A DNA stretch of 64,000 nt, taken from positions 674,501-738,500 of the forward strand of contig NZ_VMBG01000002.1 of the NCBI RefSeq assembly GCF_007559335.1. Reading direction: 5' to 3'. This DNA comes from Rariglobus hedericola (GTDB taxonomy: Bacteria; Verrucomicrobiota; Verrucomicrobiia; Opitutales; Opitutaceae). This document shows, one piece after another, positions 4,301-59,145 of the stretch. The translations under genes were made by a program, and so were the position numbers. Below the pieces are notes generated by a model, which was not told the DNA's origin, did no database searches, and saw nothing but the letters and a program-made list of their open reading frames with translations. Numbering within the stretch: the first letter of the stretch is position 1; the number at the start of each line of letters is the position of its first letter.

Positions 4301-4341
4301 AAAGCCGGTTTGTAACTTATTAAGTTACAAACCGGCTTTTT
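4301..4341. terminator. perfect 19-bp-arm palindrome, bidirectional terminator; copy 1 of the short palindrome family
   Basis: Arms at 4301-4319 and 4321-4339 are perfectly complementary around a single central base, with an A-run on one side and a T-run on the other, between the convergent agarase-like and MFS genes. The core GTAACTTATTAAGTTAC is the same as in five other copies in the window, so this is a dispersed repeat serving as terminator. Confidence 0.75.
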
Positions 4342-4384
4342 GGCGAAAGGCTTTTGATGTAGAGCTACGGCGGGGCCGGCCGGG

Positions 4385-5560
4385 TTAGTGCGGGGCTCGC
4401 AGGCGGAGGACGAGGGGGAGCATCGCGAGGGGGGCGAGGGCGGAGATGGCGAGGCCCCAGTGGAGGTTGCTGTGGTCGGCGATCAGACCGACGAGCCAGG
4501 GCATAAAGATGCCGCCGGCGTTGCCGAGTGCCGCGAGCGCGCCGAACATGCTCGCGCCGCCTTGGGGATAACGGTCGGCGGTCACGGCAAGCATCGTGGG
4601 CCAGAGGCAGCTGCCGGTGAAGCCGGCGAGTATGCAGGCGGTGAGAGCCAGCGAGGGAATCGGAAGAAATGATCCCAGAATGAAAAGCACCACCGTGCTG
4701 GCGCAGCTCCAGGCCATGAGTTGAAAGGAGTTGAAGCGGGTGCCGGCGAAGCCGACCACCATGCGGCCGAGTGCCATCGCGACGGAGAAAAGGAGCAGTG
4801 AACCTCCGCTGATCCATGTGGGGAAACCGAGGGAAGTTTCGGCGTAGGCCGGCAGCCACTGGGCCATGCCGAGTTCGGTGGCGCCACCGAGGAAAATGCC
4901 GATGGCCGCGAACTGGAACCAGCGGTGCGTGAAGAGTGAGCGGACCGAGGTGCGGACGCTTTCATGCGGAAGATCGGGAAACTTTAGCGGGGCGAACGCG
5001 GCGAGCAGACCGAGCGGCAACGGGAGAAGCACGAGACAGGAGCCGCGCCAGCCGAAGCCGGCGGCGAGGGCGAGTGAACCCGCGAGCACGGTGACGGCGG
5101 CACCCACGCAGTAGAACGAGTGCAACCAGTTGAGGGCGACGGAACGGTTCGCGGGGTTGAGCGCGGAAACGATGGGACTGAGCACCATGTCGAGGACACC
5201 TGATCCGAGACCGAGGGCAAAGACGGCGAAGAGGAGCAGCGTGTAGGTGGGCGCGAAGGCCATCGCGACGAGACTGATGGCGATGAGCGCGAGGCCGAAT
5301 TGCGCGAAGGGTTTGGCTCCGTGGCGGTCGGCGAGCGGCCCGGTGATGACGATGCCGACGACGAGTCCGGCAAAGGCGAGACCGCCGAGACGACCGAGTT
5401 GTTCACCGCTCAGGCCCGCGGCACCGCCGTAAGTCGTGCTCAGTGTGGTGAGGAAGACCGGGAGCAGGTTGAGGCCGATGGCGAGGCTCATCATCGCGCC
5501 GTAGGAGAGCAGCGTGAGGAGGCGGGCGCGGATGAGCGGGGCGGATGCGGAAGCGGACAT
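4385..5560 (-). CDS. major facilitator superfamily transporter
   Basis: 391 residues from the ATG at 5560 (MSASASAPLIRARLL); an upstream in-frame Met would add 26 residues that do not look like the family. About 12 hydrophobic segments are visible. The MFS loop 2-3 motif is present as GPLADRHGAKP, and a weaker equivalent between helices 8 and 9 as LGRMVVGFAGTRF. Substrate is unknown; the overall look is of sugar or drug/metabolite carriers of the FucP-like broad class. It is transcribed toward the agarase-like gene and ends at the shared palindromic terminator. The gene upstream (hydroxyacid dehydrogenase) is divergent. Confidence 0.85.
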   Translation of the reverse strand: MSASASAPLIRARLLTLLSYGAMMSLAIGLNLLPVFLTTLSTTYGGAAGLSGEQLGRLGGLAFAGLVVGIVITGPLADRHGAKPFAQFGLALIAISLVAMAFAPTYTLLLFAVFALGLGSGVLDMVLSPIVSALNPANRSVALNWLHSFYCVGAAVTVLAGSLALAAGFGWRGSCLVLLPLPLGLLAAFAPLKFPDLPHESVRTSVRSLFTHRWFQFAAIGIFLGGATELGMAQWLPAYAETSLGFPTWISGGSLLLFSVAMALGRMVVGFAGTRFNSFQLMAWSCASTVVLFILGSFLPIPSLALTACILAGFTGSCLWPTMLAVTADRYPQGGASMFGALAALGNAGGIFMPWLVGLIADHSNLHWGLAISALAPLAMLPLVLRLRAPH

Positions 5561-5608
5561 GGAGCGAACCAAGGAGCACGCGGGCGGGGTGAAGGCAAGG
5601 GGCGGAGA

Positions 5609-5647
5609 TTTTTTTAACACGGAGTTTGCGGAGGTCACGGAGAGCGG
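5609..5647. repeat. degenerate copy of the dispersed TTAACxCGGAG-type repeat
   Basis: A T-run followed by TTAACACGGAG and TTGCGGAGGTCACGGAG, in the divergent gap between the MFS and hydroxyacid dehydrogenase genes. It resembles the other TTAACGCAGAGG-type sequences in this window but is weaker. Confidence 0.4.
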
Positions 5648-5707
5648 AGCCGCGGAGGCGAGTTATGACTGGGCGTGCGACGCGGGAGGCGTAGAGTTTC
5701 GGGCACT

Positions 5708-6685
5708 ATGAGTCATACGATCTGGTGCAATGCGGCGTTGAATGAGCGGGCGGAGCAGATGCTGGTGGACGGCGCGATGGGGCATCGGGTGATTTTTGCC
5801 AAGGAGCGGCTGGCTTCGGTGCTCAAGGCCGGGAAAAGCGACGAAGGTATCGCGGAGGCAGATGTGGTCTTCGGGCAGCCTGAGCCGGCGGAGTGTTTGC
5901 AGCGTGCGAAGATCAAGTGGGTGGCGGTGACGAGCGCGGGTTACGGGCGCTACGACACGCCGGAATTCCTGGAGAATTTTAAGGCGCGCGGGTCGGTGTT
6001 CTCGACGAGCTCGACGGTGTTTGCGGAGCCGTGCGCGCAACACGTGATGGCGATGATGTTGGCGCTCGGGCGTCAATTGCTTGAGTCATACGCGGAGCAA
6101 CGGGGCGACAAGCAGTGGAAGTTTTTCGAGCGGAGGTCGGCGTCGGTATTGATGAACGGGCAGACGGTGCTGCTGCTTGGTTACGGCACGATTGCGCGGC
6201 GGCTGACGGAGTTGCTGGCGCCGTTTGGTATGAAGATTTATGCGGTGCGGCGGAAGGCGCACAGCGAGCGCGGCGTGTTTGTGATTTCGGAGGAACGTGT
6301 GACGTCGGTGCTCGGCGAGGCGGATCATGTCGTAAACTTGCTCCCGGATAACGAAGCGACGCGGAATTATGTGAACGCGCGGCGGCTGGCGGCGTGCAAG
6401 CCGGGCGCGCGTTTCTACAACATCGGACGCGGGACGACGGTGGATGAAAATGCGCTGATGCAGGCGCTGGAAAACGGCAAGCTGGGCGCGGCTTACCTCG
6501 ATGTATTCGCCGAGGAACCGCTCCCGTCGTCGAGCCGGTTATGGACGACGCGAAATTGTTTTATCACGCCGCACACGGCGGGCGGACGCAGTGACCAGGA
6601 TGTGGCGCTGGTGAAACATTTCGTGGGAAATTTTAAGAAATTTGCCGAAGGCGAGACGGGCGCGATGGATGACCGTGTGGTGTAG
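5708..6685 (+). CDS. D-isomer-specific 2-hydroxyacid dehydrogenase, NAD-binding
   Basis: 325 residues from ATG 5708 (MSHTIWCNAAL). The Rossmann nucleotide loop is LLLGYGTIARRL (about residue 158), followed by the family signatures NLLPDNEATRNYV, FYNIGRGTTVDENAL and, for the catalytic His, CFITPHTAGG near residue 298. The Glu that pairs with this His is likely in the DVFAEEPLP segment. These enzymes reduce 2-oxoacids to D-2-hydroxyacids or the reverse; the substrate cannot be assigned. Single gene, followed five bases after its stop by a strong terminator. Confidence 0.9.
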   Translation: MSHTIWCNAALNERAEQMLVDGAMGHRVIFAKERLASVLKAGKSDEGIAEADVVFGQPEPAECLQRAKIKWVAVTSAGYGRYDTPEFLENFKARGSVFSTSSTVFAEPCAQHVMAMMLALGRQLLESYAEQRGDKQWKFFERRSASVLMNGQTVLLLGYGTIARRLTELLAPFGMKIYAVRRKAHSERGVFVISEERVTSVLGEADHVVNLLPDNEATRNYVNARRLAACKPGARFYNIGRGTTVDENALMQALENGKLGAAYLDVFAEEPLPSSSRLWTTRNCFITPHTAGGRSDQDVALVKHFVGNFKKFAEGETGAMDDRVV

Positions 6686-6689
6686 ATAT

Positions 6690-6724
6690 GAAGAAGGCCC
6701 GACGCGGGTGGTCGGGCCTTCTTC
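6690..6724. terminator. bidirectional rho-independent terminator
   Basis: GAAGAAGGCCCGAC (6690-6703) pairs perfectly with GTCGGGCCTTCTTC (6711-6724) across a 7-base loop, between the convergent hydroxyacid dehydrogenase and EF-hand protein genes. Confidence 0.9.
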
Positions 6725-6754
6725 AGAAAGCGAGGCTTAAGGCCGATGCTGCCG

Positions 6755-8974
6755 TTAGGGCGTGGGGGCGGGGGTGTTGGCGACGGGGGCTTCGACGACC
6801 GGGGTGATGGGAGCAACGACGACGACGGGCTTGGGGGCGGGTTGCCAGAAGTAGTGGCCGTTTTTTTGTTCGTCCCAGCGGATGACACTGGCGGCGAGGA
6901 TCGCGACGACGATGAGCGTCCAGATGAGTTTCTGGCGGCGGATGGCTTCTTTGTCGGAATAGGGATCGTTGAGGTCACGCTTGGAGCCGTTGGGGAGGAC
7001 GGCGCGTTCGGTGAGCTTGGTGCCGAACGGAATGTTGATCTTCACGCGTCCGTTGATGGCCCAGCCGTTGGCTTCGAGGATGGGGCCGATGTTGCGCTGA
7101 CGGAGCTTCAGCCACGCGATGAGCATCGAAGGGCCGGAGATGACTGCAATGAGGCCGATGAAGACGAGCGGGAGTTGCCAGAAAGTGAGTTTGGCGAGCC
7201 CGGTGGCGATGGCGCCGAGGGCACCACCAATCGCGCCGACGGCGACGCCCATCGCGGCGACGGTGCCGATGTCCATTTTCTTGGGCTCGGGCTTGGGACC
7301 GGCGGCCTTTTTGTCGGCGTTGGCGGCGGTCTCGGCGGCGGTGGCGAGCTTGGCGTTGCTCTCGGCATCGGCGGCTGCGGCGCGCTTGGCGACCTGCTCC
7401 TCGATCATACGCACGAATTTTTTATACGGGGAGAGGAACGCCTGACGGATGCTGATGGGGTTGTCGGCGATGCTGGTGATGGAGGCATCCCAGTCGCGGC
7501 CCTGACGGTCGTAGAAGACGCCGTTGCGACCGACGAAGAGGTAATCGCTGTCGCCGTTGGTGAAGCAGGCGGCGACCTTGATGGGGGCTTCACCGGCGCG
7601 TTTGCAGTCCACGTAGGCGATGAAGGCTTTGCTCATCGCGGCAAGGGGCGAAGGAGCGGCAACCTTGATGCAGAACTCGGTGCTGCGTGTATCGAGATAG
7701 AGCGTGCCGGCCTGGAAGTTGGCGTAGTGGTCAGGAGAGAAGAACTCGAAGAAGTTGACGAAATTATTGAGCAACGCGCGGAAGTCGCGAGAGAAGCGGA
7801 GGAGTTTTTCGACCGATGTGATGGCGACGAATTCGGGATCGAGGGCTTTGTCCTGCGCGATGAGTGCGAGGAGTGCGGCTTTTTGGTCGGCGGCGAGGAG
7901 GGCTTTGACGCGCTCGAGGCCGAGCTTCTCGACAGAGCCGCCACCTTTGGAACCGGCCCAGGCTTCGAAGGCGGCGACTTTGGCTTTGAGGGCGGTCCAG
8001 TCGGCTTCAGTGAGGCTGGTCTTGGCGGAACCGAACACGGGTGTGACGGCGGTGGCGTGAAGCGTCACGAGGGCGGCGGCCCAAGCGGGGTTGACGGCGG
8101 CGAGCAGAGGGAGCGGTTGGTCGGCCGCGATGCGCGCCAAGGGGAAGCCAGCGACTTCCTGGGTGGTGATGGAGAGGTCTTGCGCGGCGAGAGCGAGGTA
8201 TTCGGTCTCGGAGCGATTGAGCGCGGCGAGGGCGCGGGCGTCGTAGGCGGCGAGGCGGGTGCGAGAGAAATAATCGTCCACCTTGGTGCGCACGGCCTGG
8301 ATGGCGGTGAGGGCGGCGGAGGTATCGGCGCCGAGAGCGAGGACGTCGGCGGAGGCGCCTTTTTCGGACCACGCGGCGAAGGCGGTGAGGTCGGCGTAAA
8401 AGGTGGCGACGCGGGATTCGTCGATACCGGAGGCACCGGAGCGATCGGTGGTGCCGCCGATGGTGCCGACGATGTCTGCGACGAGGAGCTTGAGAGCTTC
8501 GTCGGTGGTGGAGTCGGGAGTGATGACTCCATCGCCATTGAAAGGCGTGGAAGAGAAGATGCGGGCGGTATCGGAGGCTTGGGCGAGGGTGATCTCGGTG
8601 GCCTCGGGCTGGCCGAAATTAGAGAGAATGCGTTTGGCGGCGATGAGGGCGGACTTGCCTTCAGGGGTGGAGGCTTTGAAAGCGGCGAGGGGCAGGGCGT
8701 CTTTGCGGCGCAGGAGAACGCCGAGGTCTTCGAGATGCAGGGCGGCCCAATCGATGGCGGCGAGCAACTCGGGGACGCGGATGCGCCCGTCTTTATCGGT
8801 GTCGATGAGCGCTAGAGTTTTCTCGTCGAGCTCGAGACCTTTTACGGGGCAGCTCAGAGCGACCCAGAGTTTTTGATCCAAGTCTTTCAGCGCGACCAGA
8901 TCGGCGCCGGATTCGATAGCAACTTGGTCGAGACCGCCGATGCGGAAGAATTTCCAGACGTGTGAGGTGGCCAT
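6755..8974 (-). CDS. large EF-hand-containing membrane protein, function unknown
   Basis: 739 residues from ATG 8974 (MATSHVWKFFRIGG). A canonical EF-hand loop is visible near residue 58 (DTDKDGRIRVPE) and a weaker Ca-site (FNGDGVITPD) near residue 170. The long middle part is Ala/Leu-rich and soluble. The last quarter contains two or three membrane segments (about residues 585-635 and 685-702), then a Pro/Val-rich tail of about 35 residues. An intervening soluble stretch reads NGRVKINIPFGTKLTERAVL. I recognise no enzyme domain. It probably is a calcium-responsive, membrane-anchored protein with the bulk on one side of the membrane. Single gene. Confidence 0.75.
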   Translation of the reverse strand: MATSHVWKFFRIGGLDQVAIESGADLVALKDLDQKLWVALSCPVKGLELDEKTLALIDTDKDGRIRVPELLAAIDWAALHLEDLGVLLRRKDALPLAAFKASTPEGKSALIAAKRILSNFGQPEATEITLAQASDTARIFSSTPFNGDGVITPDSTTDEALKLLVADIVGTIGGTTDRSGASGIDESRVATFYADLTAFAAWSEKGASADVLALGADTSAALTAIQAVRTKVDDYFSRTRLAAYDARALAALNRSETEYLALAAQDLSITTQEVAGFPLARIAADQPLPLLAAVNPAWAAALVTLHATAVTPVFGSAKTSLTEADWTALKAKVAAFEAWAGSKGGGSVEKLGLERVKALLAADQKAALLALIAQDKALDPEFVAITSVEKLLRFSRDFRALLNNFVNFFEFFSPDHYANFQAGTLYLDTRSTEFCIKVAAPSPLAAMSKAFIAYVDCKRAGEAPIKVAACFTNGDSDYLFVGRNGVFYDRQGRDWDASITSIADNPISIRQAFLSPYKKFVRMIEEQVAKRAAAADAESNAKLATAAETAANADKKAAGPKPEPKKMDIGTVAAMGVAVGAIGGALGAIATGLAKLTFWQLPLVFIGLIAVISGPSMLIAWLKLRQRNIGPILEANGWAINGRVKINIPFGTKLTERAVLPNGSKRDLNDPYSDKEAIRRQKLIWTLIVVAILAASVIRWDEQKNGHYFWQPAPKPVVVVAPITPVVEAPVANTPAPTP

Positions 8975-9027
8975 GGATAAATTTAAGTCGCGGCAGTATT
9001 GTCTGCAGCTGAGCACTGGCAACAGCT

Positions 9028-35854: not shown

Positions 35855-36030
35855 TAATCACTTTGCAGAGGCGGAGAAGGCCGTGAGAACCGGCCACAGT
35901 TGCGCTGCGGTATCGCATCAATCCAGACCCACAACCCGTGCCTTCAGGCGCACGGGTCCAAAGCCAATCGAGACGCGAGTCTCGGTGAAGGCGAGGGGCG
36001 AGGACGCACGACTCCCTGTCAGCCAGGCTC
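35855..36030 (+). promoter_or_regulatory. candidate cobalamin riboswitch ahead of btuB
   Basis: On the plus strand GGAGAAGGCCGTGAGAACC and CACAGTTGCGCTGCGGTA resemble the conserved P3-P6 core of cobalamin aptamers (G-G-x-x-A-A, CCGGTGAGAA-type, CAGT-x-GCGC-x-GCGGT). A stem-loop CGAGACGCGAGTCTCG (35969-35984), a GAAGGCG box near 35987 and a terminal CCTG-loop-CAGG hairpin around 36014-36027 follow. The gene 240 bp downstream starts a cobalamin-type uptake operon. The final B12-box is not in the exact textbook form, so this is a structural candidate rather than a certain call. Confidence 0.6.
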
Positions 36031-36055
36031 GTTTGTAACTTATTAAGTTACAAAC
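36031..36055. repeat. short palindrome family, copy 2
   Basis: GTTTGTAACTTA and TAAGTTACAAAC around one central base, identical in core to the terminator at 4301 and again with CCGGCTT on the right. It directly follows the riboswitch candidate, so it could act as part of the expression platform. Confidence 0.8.
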
Positions 36056-36193
36056 CGGCTTGGGCCGCAGGAGGTCGGGCCACATATGCGGAGTCCGAAC
36101 ATCCTCTTTGCGGAGTCTCACCTGTCTCGATGCGATTGCGCGCAGCGGGACGTTTCCTTCATCGCAAAAATGAAGCGTGAGAGTAGCTGCTTT

Positions 36194-36223: not shown

Positions 36224-36270
36224 TTTTCCGGAAGGGGCCTGCTCTTGCCTTGGCCAGTAGCAGACTTCCT

Positions 36271-38286
36271 ATGAACAGCTCTTTGCGCGCCCGTATTCCG
36301 GGTCGCCTTTTCCTCGCGTGCGCCGTTGTGGCGCCGCTCGTTTCCTTGCGCGCTGACGTCGACTCCGCGTCGGATAAAAATAATCCGCCCATCCAATTGC
36401 CCGAGGTGGTCGTCACCGCGCGCCGCGTGCCGGAAAATCCGCTCAACGTCCCTGCCTACACGCAGGTCATCACGCGCGACCAGATCCGCGAGAGCGGCGC
36501 GACCAATCTCATCGACCTGCTCGAGAGCCAGGCGAACTTGCAGTTCAATTCCTTCGTGAGCAGCCCGACCAGCGCGAACATCTCGTTGCGCGGCACCGGC
36601 GGCTCCAGCGCGATCGGCAACGGCCGCACGCTCGTCCTCCTTGACGGCATCCGTACGAATCGTCCCGACCAAGGCCAGTTCAACTGGCTCCAGTTCAACC
36701 TCCAGTCCATCGAGTCGGTCGAGGTCATCCAAGGTCCGCAGGGCGCGTTCTACGGCGACAACGCCGTGGGCGGCGTCATCAAAATCAACACGCTCGGTGC
36801 TCCCGCGAAAAGCGGTGGCGGCGCGCAGGTGCTCGTCGGCAGCGAGGGCACGTTTAAAATTTCCGGCGGCTACACCGAGCGTGTGGGCAAGGCGTGGGCG
36901 ACGCTCTCGGGCGGTTACGATACGTCGGACGGCTATCGCGATCACTCGGGTTACGAGAATAAATATGCGACGCTCGGCTTCGGTTACGACAATCAGAAGA
37001 ACTCTGTCACGCGCTTGAATCTGTCGTATCAGGACACTGAGTTCGATCAGCCCGGCGCGCTCACGAAGGCTCAGCTGGATCAGGACCCGACGCAGATTGG
37101 CACATCGATCGGCAACGGCACGACTGAATATCGCCGCATCGCCGTGAGCAACGAATACGGCGCGGCGGATGCCCCGGTTAAACTCCTCACCGACGCCGGC
37201 GTGAGTCTGGCTGACGAGTATTTCAACGCGTTTGCCGACCTCCCGTTCGCGACCCAATACAACCGCGATCTCGAAGGTTATTTCTTCGCACCAAAACTGC
37301 GCATCACGACGGATGATTTCACGTTCACGCCGGGCATCGATGTGAACCACGACCGTGTTGACGTGGTCGGCACCACGCCGGTGGACAGCACCGTGAAACG
37401 CTTCGTGTTGAGCCCGTATTTGCTCTCCGAATGGCGAGCGAGCGAGCAGTTCACTTTCTCAGCAGGCTATCGCCACGAGTGGAATAAAACCGAGGCCCGC
37501 GAGCGCGTGGTCAACGATACCGGCGAGCGTCGCGACACGGCGGATGCATGGCAGCTGGCGGTGAACTACCGTCCGACCGAGACGCTGCGTTTTTATGCGA
37601 AATACGACCGCACCTATCGTTTCCCCGCGACCGACGAGATGGCATATTACCAGGGTTTCCCGTCGCCGGTTTTCTTCGATGCGAATCTGAAGCCCGAGAC
37701 GAGCGACAACTTCGAAGTCGGCGCCAACGTGAAGCGCGACGGCTGGAATGGCGGCGTCTCCACTTATTATCTGAAAACCGAGGACGAGATTTTCTTCAAC
37801 GGTTTCCCCGTCTTCCAAAACCAGAATCTGCCCGAGACGCGTCGCGTGGGCGCGCAGGCGAATGTCGGCTACACGGCGAAGATCGCGGGCTTCCGTTCGC
37901 AGATCGATTTCGTGGACGCGGACCTCGTTAAAGGCGCGGGCACGGTGTTGACCGGGCCGCTGCGTCAGGTGCCCGAGTGGCGTCTCACCAACACGGTGTT
38001 CGTGAAGCCGGTCGAGAACTGGACGCTCAGCGTGACGCACCGCCATCTGGGCGAAAGTTACATGGATGATTTCTACGCGACGACGAATCCGCCCAAGGTG
38101 AAATCCGAGGAAGTGTTCGATGCGAAGATCACCTTCCGGGCGACGACAAACTGGAGCGTGTATGCGGGCGTGAACAACATCTTCGACCGCACCACGGTGT
38201 CGTATGCGTCCACGTCGTTTGGCACGGATTCGTATTATCCGGGACTGGGCCGCTTTATTTATACTGGGGCTTCGGTGCAGTTCTAA
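36271..38286 (+). CDS. btuB: TonB-dependent outer membrane receptor, probably for cobalamin
   Basis: 671 residues from ATG 36271 with a signal peptide (LFLACAVVAPLVSLRADV) and a TonB box-like LPEVVVTARR. The plug domain is typical (VITRDQIRESGATNLIDLLE, ISLRGTGGSS, TLVLLDGIRTNR, VIQGPQGAFYGDNAVGGVIK), and the barrel ends in the aromatic GASVQF. Substrate is inferred, not proven: it opens an operon of btuF-, btuC- and btuD-like genes preceded by a cobalamin riboswitch candidate and next to B12-dependent metH. An iron-siderophore receptor would look the same in sequence. Confidence 0.8.
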   Translation: MNSSLRARIPGRLFLACAVVAPLVSLRADVDSASDKNNPPIQLPEVVVTARRVPENPLNVPAYTQVITRDQIRESGATNLIDLLESQANLQFNSFVSSPTSANISLRGTGGSSAIGNGRTLVLLDGIRTNRPDQGQFNWLQFNLQSIESVEVIQGPQGAFYGDNAVGGVIKINTLGAPAKSGGGAQVLVGSEGTFKISGGYTERVGKAWATLSGGYDTSDGYRDHSGYENKYATLGFGYDNQKNSVTRLNLSYQDTEFDQPGALTKAQLDQDPTQIGTSIGNGTTEYRRIAVSNEYGAADAPVKLLTDAGVSLADEYFNAFADLPFATQYNRDLEGYFFAPKLRITTDDFTFTPGIDVNHDRVDVVGTTPVDSTVKRFVLSPYLLSEWRASEQFTFSAGYRHEWNKTEARERVVNDTGERRDTADAWQLAVNYRPTETLRFYAKYDRTYRFPATDEMAYYQGFPSPVFFDANLKPETSDNFEVGANVKRDGWNGGVSTYYLKTEDEIFFNGFPVFQNQNLPETRRVGAQANVGYTAKIAGFRSQIDFVDADLVKGAGTVLTGPLRQVPEWRLTNTVFVKPVENWTLSVTHRHLGESYMDDFYATTNPPKVKSEEVFDAKITFRATTNWSVYAGVNNIFDRTTVSYASTSFGTDSYYPGLGRFIYTGASVQF

Positions 38287-48325: not shown

Positions 48326-48405
48326 GGGAGAATCGAGCCCGAGATTGGGTCCCGTCCGTGATGCCTCAACGGTGAATCGCAGGAAAAATCCGGATATCCC
48401 GGACC

Positions 48406-48432
48406 AGTTTGTAACGTATTAAGTGACAAACT
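48406..48432. repeat. short palindrome family, copy 3
   Basis: AGTTTGTAACGTA, central T, TAAGTGACAAACT; two mismatches between arms. Lies 80 bp ahead of recQ. Confidence 0.7.
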
Positions 48433-48523
48433 TGCTTGGTTTTACGGCGTAACAAAAAAGCGCGAGGGGCGTTCGGCGCGGTGCGCCACGTCGGCGTTGT
48501 CGGCGTAAGGACTCCAAGGACGC

Positions 48524-49562: not shown

Positions 49563-51290
49563 TCAGCGGGGGCTGCCCAAATAAGCCAGCCAGCCGCCCA
49601 AAGAGGAGATGTTGCGAGCGCCGTTGAGGGCGTGAGGTTCGCAGAGAAAGCTTTTGACCCACGTTCCGTCATTCAGTTCGGCATTACCGATAACAAGGGG
49701 CGCGGGAACGGCGGCTGTGAAGCGTCCGAAGGCTTCAAGGGTGAGCGCGTAAGTCTCCACCGCGATGGGAGCGCCACCGGATTCATCGGAGGCGATGCGC
49801 ACGAGTCCGGGTTTGGGCGGCGTGGTGTGGGCGAGCGCGTAAAGTTGGTAACGCGCCGAGGTGGTGGTTGCGGCGAGGAAGCGGGCTCCGAGTGTCGTGA
49901 GCTGGTGGTGGAGGGGTTGCCCGCGCAAGTGCGCACCGCAGACGGCGAGCGTGATCTCGGATGCGACTGGCGAGGGCGACGCGGGCGAAGGGGGAGCGGC
50001 GGGTTTGTCACTTATTAAGTTACAAACCGGTTGGGTGTTTTCGCCGAGATAGCGGGCGCCGAGGACGAGGAGTTGTGCGTCTTGCCAGGCGGGGGCGATG
50101 AACGTGATGCCGAAGCCGGGGCCGAACGTGTAACGACCGGCGGGGACGGTGAGTCCGCAGAGGTCGAGGAGGTTCATGAAATTGTTGTAGCGGCCGAGAT
50201 TCGAGTTCAGGCGGATCGGATCGGCTTCCATTTCGGCGACGGTGTAGATCGTGCCGGCCGTGGGAGCGACGAGCGCGTCGACGGTGGGGAGGATGGTGTC
50301 GGCGGCGCGTCGGAGTTCGGCGAGACGGTAGGTGGCGCGGAAGGCGTCGACGGCGGATGCGGTTTTTCCGCCGAGGATGATTTTGGCGACCGTGGGATCG
50401 AGTCCGGCGGCGCGTGCGGCTTCGGGCGTGGCAGAGTGTTGCTCGATGAATTCACCGACGGCCGCATAACGCTCGGCAGTCCACGGGCCTTCGTAGAGGA
50501 GGCGTGCGGCGTCGAGGAACGGCGCGAAATCGACCTCGATGATTTCAGCGCCGAGAGCGCGCAGGCGGTCGAGGGCGGTGGCGAACAGCGCAGGCGACTC
50601 GGTGTTGCCGAACCACTCGAGCTGATCGGCGCGAGGGGCGCCGAGGCGGGGTTTCCCGGAGGAAGTGTCACCTATTAGGTGACAATTTGGTTTGGGGCGG
50701 GAAAAAGGATCGGCGGGGTCGTAGCCTTCGGCGGCGGCGAGGACGCGGGTGGTGGTGGCGATGTCGCGGGCGAAGATCGAGACGCAGTCGAGGGACCGGC
50801 AGGCGGGGACGACGCCGCGGGTGGAGAGACGACCCTTGGTGGGTTTGAGTCCGATGATCTGGTTGAAGGCGGCCGGGACGCGTCCGGAGCCGGCGGTGTC
50901 GGTGCCGAGGGCGAAATCGACGAGTCCGGAGGCGACGGCGACGGCGGAGCCGCTGGAAGAGCCGCCAGAGATGTAGTCAGAGTTGAATACGCAGCGCGGA
51001 GCGCCGTGGGGTGAGCGCGTGCCGACGAGGCCGGTGGCGAATTGGTCGAGGTTGGTCTTGCCGACAGGAAGCGCGCCGGCGGTGAGGAGGTTTTGGACGA
51101 CGTGGGCGGAGGCGGAGGGAGTGTAGGTGAAGCCCGGGCAGGCGGCGGTCGTGGGGATGCCCACGAGGTCAATGTTGTCTTTGATCGCGAAGGTCAGGCC
51201 AGCCAACGGGCCCGTCGAGGCGGTGGGCGTGAAGCGAGCTTGTTCGGCTGTGTTGAGGCGATGAATCCAGATCGCGGTATCGGTGCTCAT
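49563..51290 (-). CDS. atzF: allophanate hydrolase (amidase signature family)
   Basis: 575 residues. The amidase-signature triad is visible: Lys in LTFAIKDNIDLVG (about 35), the cis-Ser in SGGSSSGSAVAV, and the Ser in GTDTAGSGRVPAA. The C-terminal domain (about 440-575, LAVCGAHLRGQPLHHQL) is that of allophanate hydrolases such as AtzF. It converts allophanate to carbon dioxide and ammonia. Two short palindromes lie inside the gene (at 50002 and 50665), both read in frame: residues 202-209 (NCHLIGDT) and 420-429 (CNLISDKP). Six bp downstream of the carboxylase gene. Confidence 0.93.
   Translation of the reverse strand: MSTDTAIWIHRLNTAEQARFTPTASTGPLAGLTFAIKDNIDLVGIPTTAACPGFTYTPSASAHVVQNLLTAGALPVGKTNLDQFATGLVGTRSPHGAPRCVFNSDYISGGSSSGSAVAVASGLVDFALGTDTAGSGRVPAAFNQIIGLKPTKGRLSTRGVVPACRSLDCVSIFARDIATTTRVLAAAEGYDPADPFSRPKPNCHLIGDTSSGKPRLGAPRADQLEWFGNTESPALFATALDRLRALGAEIIEVDFAPFLDAARLLYEGPWTAERYAAVGEFIEQHSATPEAARAAGLDPTVAKIILGGKTASAVDAFRATYRLAELRRAADTILPTVDALVAPTAGTIYTVAEMEADPIRLNSNLGRYNNFMNLLDLCGLTVPAGRYTFGPGFGITFIAPAWQDAQLLVLGARYLGENTQPVCNLISDKPAAPPSPASPSPVASEITLAVCGAHLRGQPLHHQLTTLGARFLAATTTSARYQLYALAHTTPPKPGLVRIASDESGGAPIAVETYALTLEAFGRFTAAVPAPLVIGNAELNDGTWVKSFLCEPHALNGARNISSLGGWLAYLGSPR
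50002..50028. repeat. short palindrome family, copy 4, in atzF
   Basis: GGTTTGTCACTTA, T, TAAGTTACAAACC with one mismatch between arms. Encodes CNLISDKP in the linker before the C-terminal domain. Confidence 0.8.
50665..50685. repeat. short palindrome family, copy 5, in atzF
   Basis: TGTCACCTA, T, TAGGTGACA: two positions differ from the other copies, and both arms change together (compensatory). Encodes NCHLIGDT in the same frame as copy 4. Confidence 0.75.
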
Positions 51291-54200: not shown

Positions 54201-54995
54201 GGCGGCGGTGCCGAGGCGGGCGGCGCAGGCGAGGAGTTCGGTGCGTTGGTCGGCAGTGAGTCCGGGGGCGGGGGTTTCTTCGACGACCTTTTGGTTGCGG
54301 CGTTGGACGGAGCAGTCGCGTTCGCCGAGGGCGACGACGTGACCGTGGGAATCGCCGAGGATCTGGACTTCGATGTGGCGGGCGTGCTCGACGAATTTCT
54401 CGAGGAAGACACCGCCGTCCTTGAAATTGTTTTTGGCGAGGCGGACGACGGATTCGAAGGCGGGGGCGAGTTCGGCGGGTTTGCGGATGAGGGACATGCC
54501 GATGCCGCCGCCGCCGCCGGTGCTTTTCAGCATGACGGGGTAGCCGATGCGGGCGGCTTCGCGTTTCGCGGTTTCTAGGTCGGGGAGGAGGTCGGTGCCG
54601 GGGAGAAGGGGAACACCGTGGGCCTTGGCGAGGGCGCGGGCGGAGTGTTTGGGGCCGAGCTGGCGCATCTGCGCGGCGCGGGGGCCGATGAAGGCGATGC
54701 CGGCGGCTTCGCAGGCTTCGACGAAGGCGGCGTTTTCGGAGAGGAAGCCGTAGCCGGGGTGGATGGCTTGGGCGCCGGTGGCCTTGGCGGCGGCGAGGAT
54801 TTTGTCAGCGTCGAGGTAGCTTTGCGCGGCGGGGGACGGGCCGATGTGGATGGCTTCGTCGGCTTGGGAGACGTGGAGGCTGTGGCGGTCGGCGTCGGAA
54901 TAGACGGCGACGCTGGCGATGCCCATTTTCTTGAGCGTGCGGATGACGCGGCAAGCGATGGCTCCGCGGTTGGCGATGAGGACTTTTGAAAACAT
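51297..54995 (-). CDS. urea carboxylase family enzyme, probably guanidine carboxylase
   Basis: 1,232 residues from ATG 54995. Biotin carboxylase domain (1-450: FSKVLIANRGAIACRVIRT, ATP loop MLKSTGGGGGIGMS, EKFVEHARHIEVQILGD). Carboxyltransferase half one of KipA type (VLEGGTQTTVQDYPGRIGY, about 475-770), a linker of repeat sequence (772-813), carboxyltransferase half two of KipI type (860-1150), then biotin carrier with ESMKME (about 1198). The family carboxylates urea or guanidine. UAAP1 and UAAP2 in the same operon favour guanidine: product carboxyguanidine, then allophanate after deimination. The residue separating urea from guanidine specificity was not resolved here. Confidence 0.9.
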   Translation of the reverse strand: MFSKVLIANRGAIACRVIRTLKKMGIASVAVYSDADRHSLHVSQADEAIHIGPSPAAQSYLDADKILAAAKATGAQAIHPGYGFLSENAAFVEACEAAGIAFIGPRAAQMRQLGPKHSARALAKAHGVPLLPGTDLLPDLETAKREAARIGYPVMLKSTGGGGGIGMSLIRKPAELAPAFESVVRLAKNNFKDGGVFLEKFVEHARHIEVQILGDSHGHVVALGERDCSVQRRNQKVVEETPAPGLTADQRTELLACAARLGTAAGYTNAGTVEFVYDNATGHFYFLEVNTRLQVEHGVTEEVTGIDLVEWMILSAAGELDLRNYVPSATGASIQVRLYAEDAGKNFQPAAGTLTDVHFQSSARIETWVETGSEVSAFYDPMIAKIIVRGTDRADALARLDSALADTRVYGLETNLPYLRQIIASEGFHTGSVTTKYLNGLPFVPSTIEVLEGGTQTTVQDYPGRIGYWDVGVPPSGPMDNLSFRLANRLVGNPDTAAALELTVNGPSLRFNTAAVVALTGAHMPATLDNKPVAPHRAFRIRAGQTLRIGSVSGAGLRAYLAIRHGLDVPDYLGSKSTFTLGLFGGHSGRALRTGDVLRVHTSTPGGVTTDAPLLRAPAAIQPPLTREWSIGVLYGPHGAPDFFTEADISVLLTTAYEVHYNSARTGVRLIGPKPEWARRDGGEAGLHPSNIHDNAYAIGAVDFTGDMPIILGPDGPSCGGFVCPFTIVQAELWKMGQLKPGDKVRFVALTAQHARELAYAQESTIETLRPSRTSKPLSREGYEGSEGSNQSSKTPNPSSEPSLPSHPSRDTPPEPAVLHELPARPTAPAAVYRRQGDANLLIEYGPLQLDIAMRMRVHALQTWLERHKVPGLIDLTPGIRSLQVHFDYRLLPMERLLEILLRAESELPAIDDIEVPSRIVHLPLSWEDESTLLAIRKYMQIVRKDAPWCPSNLEFIRRINDLPNLEEVYRICFDASYLVLALGDVYLGAPVATPVDPRHRLVTTKYNPARTWTPENAVGIGGAYLCIYGMEGPGGYQFIGRTCQMWNRHKQTADFTDGKPWLLRFFDQIKFYPVSNAELTQFREDFPQGRVKLRIEETTFKLRDYQRFLSENEATITAFKTHQQPAFEAERQRWIDSGQINFSASDESASSLDESAIPEGCVALPAHIPGNVWKILVSPNDTVTEGQPLVILESMKMEVTVSATRAGVIREIRCAEGRPVNAGETLIVLEG
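52563..52672. repeat. GTCTCGCGAAGG dyad, element A, inside the carboxylase gene
   Basis: Starts GTCTCGCGAAGG and ends CCTTCGCGAGAC with matching inner arms (GGGAGCGAAGGTTC / GAACCTTCGCTTCC). Translated in frame as a Ser/Pro-rich linker between the two carboxyltransferase halves. Confidence 0.8.
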
Positions 54996-54998
54996 GAT

Positions 54999-55040
54999 GT
55001 CTCGCGAAGGAGGCGAAGGGAGCGAAGGTTCGGAGGAAGG
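54999..55040. repeat. GTCTCGCGAAGG half element B
   Basis: GTCTCGCGAAGGAGGCGAAG and then GGAGCGAAGGTTCGG, one arm of the same dyad, ending next to the stop of the GxxExxY gene and 3 bp ahead of the carboxylase ATG. Confidence 0.75.
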
Positions 55041-55042
55041 TG

Positions 55043-55444
55043 TCAACGGAAGGTGGGCTTGCCTTCGGCTCCGTTGACTATGCGGGTGATGCCGTTTTTG
55101 AGATGGGCTTCGTTGAAGTTGATGATAAAGCCGAGTTGGAGCGGGATGAGACGAAGATAGTTGTAGGTGATCTTTTTGAAGAGATCGGTGACCTCCGAGA
55201 CGGACTTGAGCTCGATGAGGACGAGGTGGTTGACGATGAGATCGGCGCGAAAGGCGACTTCTTCGAGAAGTTCGTCGTCGTAGTGGACGAGAATGGGCTT
55301 TTGTCGCTCAACGGTGAATCCGCGTTTGATGAGTTCTCGGACGAGGGCTGCTTCGTATACGGATTCAAGCAGACCGGGGCCGAGTTTGGTGTGCACGGTG
55401 AAGGCGGCGTCGAGAATGGCTTTTCCGATTTCTTCTTGGTTCAT
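55043..55444 (-). CDS. GxxExxY family protein (PD-(D/E)XK-like)
   Basis: 133 residues from ATG 55444 (MNQEEIGKAILDAAF); the open frame extends 33 codons upstream through repeat element C, which is unlikely to be real protein. The name motif is G-P-G-L-L-E-S-V-Y (about residue 22-30), and a nuclease-superfamily-like D...ELK block is FRADLIVNHLVLIELKS. Function unproven in this widespread family; a nuclease fold is inferred. It interrupts an otherwise metabolic operon and is bracketed by elements B and C. Confidence 0.88.
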   Translation of the reverse strand: MNQEEIGKAILDAAFTVHTKLGPGLLESVYEAALVRELIKRGFTVERQKPILVHYDDELLEEVAFRADLIVNHLVLIELKSVSEVTDLFKKITYNYLRLIPLQLGFIINFNEAHLKNGITRIVNGAEGKPTFR

Positions 55445-55454
55445 GACGGAGAGG

Positions 55455-55541
55455 GTCTCGCAAGGAGGGGAAGGGATCGAAGGTTCTGAGAGGGGATTAC
55501 TTTGGTTTGGTCCTTCGCTTCCTTCGTATCCTTCGCGAGAC
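55455..55541. repeat. GTCTCGCGAAGG dyad, element C
   Basis: Begins GTCTCGCAAGG and ends CCTTCGCTTCC...CCTTCGCGAGAC, with imperfect arms, filling the gap between UAAP2 and the GxxExxY gene. Confidence 0.8.
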
Positions 55542-55545
55542 ATAT

Positions 55546-56205
55546 TCAGGGATTCCAGATGAGGACTTCGACGGGGGTGGGGTTCCAGCCGTTGCAGGGG
55601 TTGTTGAGTTGGGGGCAGTTGCTGATGAGGGCCACGATGTCCATGCGGGCGGTCATCTCGACGTATTTGCCGGGGGAGGAGACGCCGTCGGCGAATTGGA
55701 GGCCGCCCTCCGGTGTCACCGGGACGTTCATGAAGAAGTTTATGTTCGCTGGGATGTCGCGTTTGTTGAGGTCGAAGGTGCTGCCGGGCCAGGTCATGAG
55801 TCCGAGGAGAAAACTCTGGCGGCAGGAGTGCATGTGGCGCGTGCCGTGGCCGTAGCGGAGGGTGTTGGCTTCGCAGGAACAGGCTCCGCCGAGGGTGTCG
55901 TGGCGTCCGCAGGTGTCGGCGGTGATTTCGGCGAGGACGTTTAGTTCGTTGGAATAGAGCTTGGTGCCGGTGGTGAGATAGATGCCGCCGTTTTCGCGGA
56001 TGGTGTCCTGGGCGCTGTAGCGTTCGCGGAAGTCGGCGGCGGCGTAGAAGAGGGTGTCGGCGGCCTGGTTGCCTTCGAGGTCGAGGATGCGGAGGACTTG
56101 GCCGGCTTTGATTTCGTGCATCCAGAAGTCGCCGGCGGGGATGACATGGCGGTAGGCGGCGTCGGCAGGAGTGAGCGAAGATTCGGTGTAGATGAGCGTG
56201 CTCAT
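55546..56205 (-). CDS. urea carboxylase-associated protein 2 (DUF1989), carboxyguanidine deiminase subunit
   Basis: 219 residues. DUF1989 pattern: [49 protein letters not shown] and [13 protein letters not shown], with Cys and His that suit a metal site. Members formerly called UAAP1/UAAP2 were assigned as the two subunits (CgdA/CgdB) of carboxyguanidine deiminase, which turns carboxyguanidine into allophanate and ammonia; which subunit is which I cannot fix here. It follows UAAP1 by 6 bp. Confidence 0.88.
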
Positions 56206-56211
56206 GGCCGG

Positions 56212-57012
56212 TCAGAGGGAGAAGAGTTCGGAGTTGTAGAGGGCTCGCTCGTTTTCGGGGCGGTAGGTGCGGCAGTAGTCGGTAGCGGAGGGCGGGTCGG
56301 TGCGGTAGAGTTGGAGTCGGATGGGAGCTGGGCCGTAGGCGAGGCGTGTATCCATGGGGTGGTGACAGGTTGTCAGGATCACGAGGACGTCGAGCTCGGC
56401 GCGGAGGTCGAGGTGGTCGCCGGCTTTGGAGTGGTTGGGGACGAAGCTCAGGCGTCCGTCGGAGTCGGTGGAGAGCTTGCTGAAGAAGTTGATGTTGGGG
56501 ACGAGGTCGCGGGCGTTAAGTCCGTGTTTGGAGAGCTCGATGAGGAAGTGGTCGTGGGAGTTGCGGTGCCAGTCGTTGCGGGCGGTCTGGTAGTTCTTCT
56601 TGCCCCATTTCTTTTCGACGTGGGCGGCGGTGTCGTGTCCGCCGAGCGGGTCGTGCCAGCCGAGGGTGTCGCCGGTAATGGAGAAGAGGGCGCGGGCCAT
56701 GTCCGAGTAGAGCATGCATCCCGTGGTGAGCTTGGAGGTGTGCTGGCCCTTGAGCGTGTCGGCCATGTTGTAGCGGTCGACGGGCTCTGCGCGGTTGAAG
56801 CAGAGGAAGGAGATGTTGGCACCGGCTTCGAGGGCGGTGAGGCGGAGCGTGGTGTGGCGACGGACTACGAAAGACACGGCGGAGCCGCCAGGAATGGTTT
56901 CCTCGACGAGCAGGCGGTCGGCGGGAATGGGCGCGGGCTGCGGGACCGGGCCGGTCGGGCGCGGCGTGGTGAAGGAGGTGCCGGAAGGAGCGGGTGGCGT
57001 AAGGAGCGGCAT
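56212..57012 (-). CDS. urea carboxylase-associated protein 1 (DUF1989), carboxyguanidine deiminase subunit
   Basis: 266 residues. Same fold as UAAP2 but longer: GGSAVSFVVRRHTTLRLTAL, ANISFLCFNRAEPVDRYN, KLTTGCMLYSDMARALFSIT, GDTLGWHDPLGGHDTAAH and INFFSKLSTDSDGRLSFVP. Forms the hetero-enzyme with UAAP2. A 28-bp dyad (57017-57044) ends 5 bp before its ATG and matches the one ahead of the binding-protein gene, so transcription may also start here. Confidence 0.88.
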   Translation of the reverse strand: MPLLTPPAPSGTSFTTPRPTGPVPQPAPIPADRLLVEETIPGGSAVSFVVRRHTTLRLTALEAGANISFLCFNRAEPVDRYNMADTLKGQHTSKLTTGCMLYSDMARALFSITGDTLGWHDPLGGHDTAAHVEKKWGKKNYQTARNDWHRNSHDHFLIELSKHGLNARDLVPNINFFSKLSTDSDGRLSFVPNHSKAGDHLDLRAELDVLVILTTCHHPMDTRLAYGPAPIRLQLYRTDPPSATDYCRTYRPENERALYNSELFSL

Positions 57013-57016
57013 GGCG

Positions 57017-57044
57017 GTGTTACGAAATATTAAAAAAGTAATAC
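57017..57044. promoter_or_regulatory. operator candidate ahead of UAAP1
   Basis: GTGTTAC-N14-GTAATAC; the arms are inverted repeats with one mismatch and centres 21 bp apart, two helical turns, as used by ribbon-helix-helix tetramers such as NikR. Same left half and spacing as at 62910. Confidence 0.6.
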
Positions 57045-57091
57045 TGCACGAACAATGCCAGTCCAGCCTGATGATGGGTCTTTTTCCGCGC

Positions 57092-57532
57092 TTAAAGCAG
57101 AGGCGGGATGGTGGTGGCGGTGAGGTTGAGCTTGCCGGTGCGGACGCCGCGGCAGGTGGTCAGCTCATTGGCCAAGGTCTGGAGGTCGGAGGCTTTGCCC
57201 TGAACGAGGAGGACCTCCATGTAATTATGGTGCTCGAGGTGAACGTGCATGCTGGAGACGACGAGCAGGTAGTGGCGGTGTTGAATCTCGGCCAGGCGGG
57301 TTTGAAGGCCCTTGGTGGTGTGGTCGTAAACCAGGCTGATGGTGCCGGCGACGGACTCGGTGCCGAGGCGGGCGGCGTTTTCGATGAGACCGTCTCGGGC
57401 GAGGGCGGCGACGGCTTGGGAGCGGCTCGCATAGCCGCGGCTCTGCACCATCGCGTCGAGCTCATCGAGGAGGCTCTCGGGGAGCGAAACGCTGAAGCGG
57501 GCGAGGCGGTCTTTTTTGGCGGCGGCGGTCAT
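57092..57532 (-). CDS. NikR-like ribbon-helix-helix regulator lacking the nickel Cys
   Basis: 146 residues. N-terminal ribbon-helix-helix (LARFSVSLPESLLDELDAMV, RGYASRSQAVAAL) and ACT-like C-terminal domain. Compared with E. coli NikR from memory: QH of His76 is kept (EIQHRH), His87 and His89 are kept (MHVHLEH), but Cys95 is Tyr (HHNYMEV). Without that ligand the square-planar nickel site cannot form. No urease or nickel transporter is nearby; the neighbours are biotin-dependent guanidine genes. It may sense another ligand and bind the dyads at 57017 and 62910 (inference). Confidence 0.85.
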   Translation of the reverse strand: MTAAAKKDRLARFSVSLPESLLDELDAMVQSRGYASRSQAVAALARDGLIENAARLGTESVAGTISLVYDHTTKGLQTRLAEIQHRHYLLVVSSMHVHLEHHNYMEVLLVQGKASDLQTLANELTTCRGVRTGKLNLTATTIPPLL

Positions 57533-57542
57533 GAGGAGAAGT

Positions 57543-57624
57543 GTCGCGCGAAGGACGCGAAGGGCGCGAAGATTTGGAGCGGAACCGGCTCGAACCTTTG
57601 TTTCCTTCGCGTGCTTCGCGCGAC
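57543..57624. repeat. GTCGCGCGAAG dyad, element D
   Basis: GTCGCGCGAAGGACGCGAAG is mirrored by CTTCGCGTGCTTCGCGCGAC; inner arms GAGC...GCTC. Lies between the glutamine-synthetase-like gene and the NikR-like gene. Confidence 0.8.
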
Positions 57625-57631
57625 TATTTTT

Positions 57632-58996
57632 TTAGAACATGCGGGCGTAGCGGTCGATTTCCCAGGCGCTGACCTGCTGGTGGTATTGGCGCCACTCTTC
57701 GGATTTGTAGGCGATGAACTCGTCGCGGAGACCCTGGCCGAGGACCTTCGTGACCCACGGGTCGGCGGCGAAGGCTTTGACGGCTTCGTCGAGCGTGCGG
57801 GGCAGCTCCTGGATGTTGCGCTTGGCGAATTCCTCGGCGCTGAGTTCGTAGAGGTTGTCCTCTTGCGGGGCGCCCGGATCGAGTTTTTCGCGGATGCCTT
57901 CAAGGCCGGCGGCGAGGGCGAGGGTGGCGGCGAGATACGGGTTGCAGGCGGAGTCGGCGTTGCGGCTTTCGCAGCGTCCGCCGCCCATGGGGACGCGGAC
58001 GGAGTTGGTGCGGTTGTTGGTGCCGAAACTGTTGAAGACGGGAGCCCACGAGAAGTAGCTCATGAGTCCGCGGCGGACGAGACGCTTGTAGCTGTTCACC
58101 GTCGGAGCCATGGCGGCGCAGATGGCGGGGCCGTGGCGGAGGATGCCGGCGATGAAGTGGTAGGCGACGGGTGTGAGGCCGAGTCCGCGCGGGTCGTCTT
58201 TCGGGTCGCACTTGAAGGCGTTGGCGCCGGTGGCGAGGTCGGAGAGCGACATGTTGAAGTGCGCGCCGTTGCCGGTTTTGTCGGCGAAGGGTTTGGGCAT
58301 GAAGGTGGCGAGGAGGCCTTCCTCGGCGGCGTAGTGGCGGGCCATCATGCGAAAGAAGACGTAGCGATCGCACATGGTGAGGGCGTCGCTGTAGTTGAAA
58401 TCGAATTCGAACTGGCTGTTGGCGTCCTCGTGGTCGAGCGAGTAGAGATCCCAGCCGAGGTCGTTGATGGCGGTGGAGACTTTGTTGAGCCAAGGGTAGC
58501 GATCCATAAAACCCTGGACGTCGTAGCAGGCCTTGTTGAGGCGGTCGTCGGGGTTGGGCATCAGGAGGGATTTGCCGTCGGGGCCGAGCTTGACGACGTA
58601 AACTTCGCACTCGATGCCGAGGTTCATGCCGAAGCCGAGGCTGGCGGCGTCGGCGAGGACTTTTTTCAACGCGACGCGTGTGCTGATGTCGTAGGGTTCA
58701 CCATGGAACGTGTTGTCGGCGGGGAACCAGGCGACCTCTTTGTTCCAAGGCAAAATGATGCCGCGATCGAGGTCGGGAAGGGAGGCGATTTCGTCGTCGT
58801 TGGGGGACTGGCCGAGGCCGTCGAGGGCGTAGCCGGTGTAGAGTTCGGAGCCGTGGGCGAAGTGGGCAAAGTGATCGATGGGGACGAATTTGCCCTTGGG
58901 GACGCCGTGGATGTCCACGTAGGCGCCGACGACGTATTTGACGCCTTTGGATTTGAGGTCGCCTTGGAGGGCGAGGATTTCGGATTCGGATTTCAT
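57632..58996 (-). CDS. glutamine synthetase family (GlnT / gamma-glutamylmethylamide synthetase-like)
   Basis: 454 residues from ATG 58996. [20 protein letters not shown] at the start, [14 protein letters not shown] (metal Glu), [49 protein letters not shown] and [20 protein letters not shown]. This resembles GlnT and GMAS proteins rather than housekeeping GlnA. It may glutamylate an amine or assimilate the ammonia released by the pathway; substrate unknown. Element E lies ahead of the start. Confidence 0.85.
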
Positions 58997-59019
58997 GAAG
59001 GAGTTGGTTTCGGAAGTGG

Positions 59020-59063
59020 GTCTCGCGAAGGAGACGAAGGACGCGAAGGTTCGGAGAAAGGGA
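59020..59063. repeat. GTCTCGCGAAGG half element E
   Basis: GTCTCGCGAAGGAGACGAAG and then GACGCGAAGGTTCGGAG, one arm of the same dyad, ending 24 bp ahead of the glutamine-synthetase-like gene. Confidence 0.75.
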
Positions 59064-59124
59064 GGGATGAGGGCACGGCAGTGGCCTTGGGAGGCGCGGA
59101 TGGCCGGTGGGCGGGGTAAGGGGT

Positions 59125-59145
59125 TTGTCACTTATTAAGTGACAA
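59125..59145. repeat. short palindrome family, copy 6, supplies a stop codon
   Basis: TTGTCACTTA, T, TAAGTGACAA; perfect arms. The TAA stop of the creatininase-family gene (59135-59137) is in its centre, and the last residues Leu-Val-Thr are encoded by it. Confidence 0.8.

What the first reader, a model, noticed from the sequence alone, without database searches (positions are those of the whole stretch)
4301..59145. Six copies of a short palindrome (core GTAACTTATTAAGTTAC) with compensatory changes
Copies at 4301, 36031, 48406, 50002, 50665 and 59125. Variants change in both arms (GTAAC/GTTAC, GTCAC/GTGAC, CCTA/TAGG), so pairing or dyad symmetry is kept. Several end with ACCGGCTT or ACCGGTT on the right, so the unit is bigger than the core. 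It occurs between genes, as terminator, after a riboswitch candidate and inside genes.
Basis: seen in the sequence. Interest (0 to 1): 0.72.

Follow-up and report, generated by a model that had tools for sequence, protein, structure and literature searches.

The report
Palindromic DNA inserts inside bacterial genes
A short mirror-image DNA element sits at dozens of places in these soil and water bacteria, often in frame inside working genes, and related species often carry it at the same place in a different spelling, which hints that something in the cell reads and reshapes the copies.

Summary
The six copies are real. They belong to a family of 63 in the 4.15-Mb genome; the reversed control pattern gave none in 13 genomes of the genus. 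All 119 stretches returned by a species-genome scan are Opitutia/Verrucomicrobia records (capped). The unit is a 21-23 bp palindrome in an element of about 39 bp. Window copies 50007 and 50667 lie in frame inside an allophanate hydrolase gene; 13 of 63 copies lie strictly inside or between matched protein domains. One phase is stop-free and reads C-N/H-L-I/L-S/G-Y/D-K/T on either strand. Several relatives lack the insert. It works like Rickettsia palindromic elements and the intragenic REPs of Opitutus terrae, but has no GTAG/CGTC tag, and no REP-type transposase was found beside it. Unexpected: places are shared within the genus (29 of 50 site-genome pairs; 0 of 13 outside), one spelling tends to predominate per genome, spellings change symmetrically in both arms, and close pairs are spaced at about 10.8-bp steps. 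I read it as an old REP/RPE-like insert maintained by an unknown dimeric DNA-recognising factor; that factor is inferred.

The parts
4302..4340 (+). copy 1, intergenic, between ORF 2950-4260(+) (no Pfam match) and the convergent MFS transporter gene 5638-4385(-); perfect extended hairpin with A and T tracts, terminator-like
36025..36063 (+). copy 2, between ORF 35826-31786(-) and a TonB-receptor gene 36250-38286(+)
48401..48439 (+). copy 3, between a sigma-70-type factor gene 49360-48629(-) and a RecQ-type helicase gene 48325-46496(-); mismatched at +-3 and +-6. L157 holds a copy about 38 bp from the predicted place, a pair that did not pass the stricter filter; G006 (L273) has none
49997..50035 (+). 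copy 4, in frame in the linker between the Amidase and AH_C domains of allophanate hydrolase; minus strand encodes QPVCNLISDKPA
50657..50695 (+). copy 5, in frame inside the Amidase domain of the same gene; minus strand encodes PNCHLIGDTSSGK (B-type core)
59117..59155 (+). copy 6; the stop codon (TAA, 59137-59135) of the creatininase gene 59944-59135(-) lies in the core of the palindrome
49563..51290 (-). allophanate hydrolase gene (575 aa) carrying two in-frame copies

Best explanation
An old family of REP/RPE-like palindromic inserts of about 39 bp in Opitutaceae and relatives. SHOWN: copies lie between genes and, in frame, inside conserved genes; one phase of the palindrome is stop-free and gives nearly the same 7-residue peptide on both strands; places are shared among species of the genus; one spelling tends to predominate in a genome; spellings differ between genomes by changes in both arms. 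INFERRED: copies inserted long ago and stayed where the host protein tolerated a flexible loop. Since then a trans-acting factor that reads the palindrome as a dimer (a DNA-binding or DNA-processing protein) has kept copies palindromic and pulls them, half-site by half-site, towards its current specificity. Close pairs sit on a similar face of the helix because the factor binds both. Where the factor is lost, copies decay into ordinary linkers (possibly G003, G006, G008). Some intergenic copies also act as terminators.
For: 63 copies in G000, 0 control hits in 13 genomes. In-frame location within conserved enzymes. Shorter loops in some relatives and solved homologues. Both amidase inserts fall in low-confidence coil of the AlphaFold2 model, around residues 203-211 and 420-442. 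The two copies read in another phase (L018, L028) both lack the stop codon of that phase; the L018 orthologue in L193 has the same base. Shared places in loci fetched by gene: 29 of 50 site-genome pairs in congeners (33 of 67 loci against 2.1 expected by random placement). Ten of 11 bridged pairs with G002 loci (0.8 expected). Predominant spelling at +-3/+-6: G002 48 of 49, JACQFT 15 of 15, JAQSDJ 13 of 14, G010 12 of 13, CAJAKX 8 of 9. Half-site shift in G000: +-6 is A-T in 45, one-sided in 15 and C-G in 3 of 63, while G010, G009 and G004 have C-G in 12 of 13, 13 of 18 and 9 of 13. Spacing of 33 independent close pairs periodic near 10.8 bp.
Against: No trans-acting factor was identified. Uniformity is not general: the commonest +-3/+-6 combination covers only 34 of 63 copies in G000, 11 of 18 in G009, 9 of 13 in G004, 5 of 11 in JANXLP and 4 of 8 in JAGGDC. 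A and B types coexist in G010 (61 and 19 hits) and G001, and the named loci were chosen with an A-type pattern, so B copies are missing from those counts. Site 1 of the amidase is B-type in G000, G010, G001 and G002, which looks like plain inheritance. Outside the genus 0 of 13 site-genome pairs share a copy in gene-fetched loci. Net insert length varies, and at amidase site 1 out-of-genus loops are similar in length without a palindrome. The spacing gaps were noticed before the test was made. G002 and named-contig loci were chosen because they hold a copy.
Confidence: 0.5

Rival explanations
1. Ordinary REP/REPIN elements moved by a RAYT-type tyrosine transposase; predominance of one spelling reflects recent spread, shared places reflect inheritance, hot spots or replacement of old copies.
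For: Size, palindromy, inverted doublets, in-frame tandem amplification with 90-nt steps in G002, patchy copy number 0-84 in one genus, coexisting spellings in G010 and G001, known intragenic GTAG REPs in Opitutus terrae (PMC3733652).
Against: No copies at 30 Y1-gene loci, about 11 of them from element-bearing genomes. G004 (72 copies) has only a 322-aa Y1 match and G012 none. No GTAG/CGTC tag. Fifteen of 63 own copies are changed in one half only at +-6, which copy-and-paste replacement would not give directly.
Confidence: 0.25
2. Transcription terminators or RNA-processing hairpins under selection for pairing only.
For: The copy at 4312 is a strong bidirectional terminator-like hairpin; 13 of 63 copies have fully paired outer arms (G-U allowed) against 2.3 expected; covariation when genomes are pooled.
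Against: Thirteen of 63 copies lie in the middle of matched domains or between them. The core is conserved in sequence well beyond pairing. Copies at 48411 and 59127 fold weakly. Pairing alone does not explain a predominant spelling per genome.
Confidence: 0.07
3. The conserved thing is the encoded peptide (C-N/H-L-I/L-S-Y/D-K), a functional protein tag.
For: Same peptide in unrelated enzymes and in both orientations.
Against: Most own copies are not shown to lie inside a gene; the phase is forced because the other phases hold stops; hosts are unrelated; spelling changes alter the peptide freely (CNLISYK, CHLISDK, CHLIGDT, SNTMGYT).
Confidence: 0.05
4. DNA-uptake-type signal: copies are kept and rewritten by biased uptake of own DNA, as with dialects of the Neisseria DNA uptake sequence.
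For: Predominant spelling per genome, in-gene copies in one phase, inverted pairs; dialects are an established behaviour of uptake sequences (PMC3630211, seen only as title and start of abstract).
Against: Only tens of copies per genome, whereas uptake sequences are recalled to number in the thousands; the unit is long and palindromic.
Confidence: 0.07

Closest known systems
Intragenic GTAG REPs of Opitutus terrae (Di Nocera et al. 2013, PMC3733652; section 15 and passages read)
   Same: Short palindromic repeats, singles and dimers, many in frame inside genes of a related bacterium; that paper also notes different REPs at about the same site of recB in Xanthomonas campestris and X. oryzae.
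   Different: No GTAG/GTGG tag here; long AT-rich palindromic core. Sequence identity to the O. terrae families could not be compared because figures are not held.
Rickettsia palindromic elements (RPE; passages of PMC10969869 and PMC3733652 read)
   Same: Palindromic, repeated, inserted in frame in unrelated genes, encoding a conserved peptide.
   Different: About 39 bp instead of ~150 bp; another phylum; the stop-free phase gives nearly the same peptide in both orientations.
REPIN/RAYT system (recalled; PMC3116915 seen only in a search listing with the start of its abstract)
   Same: Inverted doublets, species-specific sequence.
   Different: No RAYT association found in the loci examined.
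DNA uptake sequence dialects (PMC3630211, search listing and start of abstract only)
   Same: Species-specific spelling; sites in genes and as inverted pairs (recalled).
   Different: Far fewer copies, longer unit, shared insertion places.

Membership tests
REP (tagged, GTAG/CGTC superfamilies) | palindromic 20-40 bp repeat in many dispersed copies | tested here: met
   63 copies, unit about 39 bp
REP (tagged, GTAG/CGTC superfamilies) | unpaired GTAG or CGTC tag at one end | tested here: not met
   column counts to +-40 in the 63 own copies show a TTGG tail and no GTAG/CGTC columns
REPIN/RAYT | cognate RAYT gene flanked by copies | tested here: inconclusive
   0 of 30 fetched Y1 loci hold a copy at up to 3 mismatches, but only about 11 are from element-bearing genomes and many Y1 hits were not fetched
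REPIN/RAYT | inverted doublets | tested here: met
   inverted and direct pairs with centres 43-91 bp apart in many genomes
Rickettsia palindromic elements | in-frame insertion in unrelated protein genes, with relatives lacking it | tested here: met
Rickettsia palindromic elements | occurrence in Rickettsia and length about 150 bp | tested here: not met
Intrinsic terminator | GC-rich hairpin followed by T run at gene ends | tested here: inconclusive
   met by the copy at 4312 among the six window copies folded
DNA uptake sequence | promotes uptake of DNA | not testable with these tools
   needs a transformation assay

The most novel reading that the evidence does not exclude
A genome-wide site system: tens of long-lived palindromic sites, many forced into proteins as in-frame loops, whose sequence is dictated by an unknown dimeric DNA-recognising protein. 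When the protein's specificity changes, the sites of the genome are rewritten in place, half-site by half-site, giving a predominant spelling per species at shared positions, with paired sites helically phased.
Probability: 0.3. Interest if true: 0.85.

Novelty: new variant of a known kind. Interest (0 to 1): 0.58.

Why it matters
Intragenic REP/RPE elements are known, but what keeps them and what reads them is not. Here sites keep their places between species while the spelling shifts in both arms, the pattern expected of sites for a trans-acting reader. The family also shows palindromes supplying extra loops to core enzymes.

Tried and rejected
RAYT link: PF01797 searched in 56 genomes; no copies at 30 fetched loci and no match with copy number. 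Rfam: nothing at gathering score in the window. Home-made gene finding with periodic Markov models called mostly one strand and is used for no claim. Frame-opening counts over all copies do not show a general in-gene excess in other genomes: at 200 nt on both sides 51, 46 and 36 by phase (stop-free phase 46), against 11, 22 and 5 in the own genome. Frames broken at a copy looked like gene ends; they were not tested with Pfam, so interrupted genes are not excluded. Orientation versus GC skew: the T-centred strand is G-rich in 50 of 65 own rows, 23 of 50 in G002, and mixed elsewhere (196 of 331 rows in all), so polarity was dropped. The DUF1365 host protein has no solved relative at the default cut-off. 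Literature: eight searches and passages of three papers; none of the listings or passages I saw reports this family. RepRanger (PMC12306157) has no occurrence of the six terms I looked for. On re-checking several named records proved to be the same genomes as congeners by shared 80-mers (DFYA=G001, JANXRL=G007 or G005, CAMBLN=G010, JAQSWS=G004, JANJTQ=G009) and CAIKHO=G029; counts were remade, 'shared between genera' was reduced to 'possibly', and the odds were lowered from 0.55 to 0.5 and from 0.35 to 0.3, the REP/RAYT rival raised from 0.22 to 0.25.
Full report
Observation. They are the only matches to TTGTNACNTATTANGTNACAA in the window at up to 3 mismatches, against 0.03 expected by shuffling. 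The own genome (G000, 4.15 Mb, 16 contigs) holds 63 copies of GTNACNTATTANGTNAC (all 63 read with flanks). The wider pattern TGTNACNNANTNNGTNACA also gives 63 in G000; in its congeners it gives 34, 60, 1, 72, 7, 1, 34, 0, 54, 84, 16 and 5 (G001 to G012), and the reversed pattern gives 0 in all 13.

Anatomy. Conservation runs from about -18 to +20 around a central T. Outer arms are bimodal: 13 of 63 copies pair at all seven positions 12-18, G-U allowed (2.3 expected after shuffling arms), while 15 pair at two or fewer. There is no GTAG or CGTC tag, only a TTGG tail.

In-frame inserts. The ORF 51290-49563(-) is an allophanate hydrolase (Pfam Amidase 15-408, AH_C 446-571). Copies 5 and 4 fall inside the Amidase match and in the linker between the two matches. 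Genome-wide, 39 of 63 copies have some spanning ORF of at least 100 aa in one of six frames, many of which need not be genes. I gave Pfam 20 of those ORFs plus the window ORF; these 21 ORFs carry 24 copies. Thirteen copies lie strictly inside one match or between two matches: amidase twice, HPPK-PabB twice, a DinG-like helicase (left match weak), carboxypeptidase Taq, methionyl-tRNA formyltransferase, a methyltransferase, NAD(P)HX dehydratase, DUF1365, a P-type ATPase, TatD, and MGMT. Two more (AMP-binding L005, aminotransferase L010) lie beside a match that has a second stretch. The other nine are near N-termini, after the match, or in ORFs without a family. Of the 24, 22 are read in the phase TGT-AAC-TTA-(A/T)TA-AGT-(T/G)AC-AAA and its variants; the other phases of the standard core hold stop codons. 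The two exceptions, L018 and L028, carry a base that removes the stop of their phase. In L018 it is the only C at +3 among 63 copies, and the orthologue in L193 has it too (its frame was not checked). L028's copy may lie upstream of the true start. This favours translation through the element, not skipping.

Relatives without the insert. Carboxypeptidase Taq carries it in 7 of 12 congeners; 5 congeners and the 7 out-of-genus orthologues aligned show no recognisable one. DNA alignment gives a net 21 nt in comparisons with G003, G005, G006 and G007 and 30 nt with G008, and the solved homologue 5giv has a 15-residue gap there against the G000 protein. The amidase linker insert is present in 4 of the 9 congeners whose orthologue covers it. 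The first PabB site has recognisable versions in G001, G004, G007, G009, G010 and G011, an altered one in G002, and shorter loops in G003 and G005. At amidase site 1 the nine congeners covering it all have some insert-like loop (7 match the patterns), and out-of-genus loops are similar in length in three of four, so insertion is not demonstrated there. In the AlphaFold2 model (mean pLDDT 73, 11 sequences) both element-encoded stretches are coil with pLDDT under 50; four other stretches fall under 50 too.

Shared places. Flank translations of the 63 own copies were searched against all fetched loci of other genomes; I kept pairs where both sides predict the same point. In loci fetched only by gene homology, after merging loci of one genome, a copy lies at the orthologous place in 29 of 50 site-genome pairs within the genus and 0 of 13 outside, over six own sites; by locus it is 33 of 67, with 2.1 expected if copies were placed at random. 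For G002 loci, chosen for holding a copy, it is 10 of 11 (0.8 expected), being nine different G002 copies. For named contigs, also chosen for holding a copy, it is 21 of 25 (0.9 expected); 19 of these 25 pairs are with records that proved to be congeners, and of the six others three have a copy (LNEH, JAQTYQ, CAIRTK; genus not established; flank identities 57-81%). Sharing beyond the genus is thus possible, not shown.

Spelling. G002 has GTGTCACCTATTAGGTGACAC (B type), G000 mostly TTTGTAACTTATTAAGTTACAAA (A type); a third type around TAACACAATGGGTTA was seen at the Taq site of G012 and amidase site 1 of G011. The commonest +-3/+-6 combination covers 48 of 49 G002 copies, 15 of 15 JACQFT, 13 of 14 JAQSDJ, 12 of 13 G010 and 8 of 9 CAJAKX, but 34 of 63 in G000, 11 of 18 in G009, 9 of 13 in G004, 5 of 11 in JANXLP and 4 of 8 in JAGGDC: these are all ten groups with eight or more copies. 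The named loci were chosen with an A-type pattern free at +-3 and +-6, so B copies of those genomes are mostly not in these counts; G010 has both A (61 hits) and B (19), and G001 has some B. Changes are symmetric: over 320 distinct copies +-3 is T-A in 113, G-C in 100 and C-G in 71 (286 paired, 106 expected); +-6 is C-G in 181 and A-T in 110 (291 paired, 168 expected). In G000 +-6 is A-T in 45 of 63, one-sided in 15 and C-G in 3, where congeners G010, G009 and G004 mostly read C-G. Whole-copy replacement would not directly leave such mixed copies. Against a strict rewriting model, amidase site 1 is B-type in G000, G001, G002 and G010, as if simply inherited.

Pair spacing. Sixty-five distinct close pairs fall into 38 groups once homologous flanks or spacers are merged, the shortest spacing standing for each group. 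The 33 spacings under 100 bp fall at 43-48, 53-58, 66-67, 77-80 and 86, best period near 10.85 bp. No uniform set in 5000 and no exponential set in 5000 reached the observed strength; without the closest cluster the counts are 5 and 12 in 5000. The gaps were seen before the test was made.

Mechanism. Shown: dispersal, in-frame location, translation-compatible phase, shared places within the genus, predominant spelling in some genomes, two-sided changes. Inferred: origin by insertion, and a dimeric reader that maintains and shifts copies. A classical REP/RAYT system is the main rival; the missing tag, the missing transposase association in the loci seen, and the mixed half-sites weaken it, the coexistence of spellings in G010 and G001 helps it. 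[quoted passage not shown] I therefore call this a new variant of a known kind.

Noticed in passing
L342 about 1536-1822 and L359 about 1552-1749 (G002): Tandem amplification of the B-type element with 90-nt steps; in L342 four copies in one long open frame, i.e. a 30-residue protein repeat built from the palindrome.
   Followed up: partly
window 59135-59137: The stop codon of the creatininase gene lies exactly in the palindrome core.
   Followed up: partly
L282, L285, L287 (carboxypeptidase Taq orthologues without this insert): Some loops without this element hold other GC-rich inverted repeats (such as GAGCGGCCGCTC in L287), possibly a different palindromic family at the same place.
   Followed up: no
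L002 661-2676: HPPK and PabB-type domains fused in one ORF of 672 aa; in G003, G005 and G007 the two parts match as separate pieces.
   Followed up: no
L269 about 1483-1528 (G004): Two elements of different spelling side by side, 45 bp apart, at amidase site 1.
   Followed up: no
own genome copies: The T-centred strand is the G-rich strand in 50 of 65 rows in G000, but not in G002 (23 of 50); probably a strand-composition effect.
   Followed up: partly
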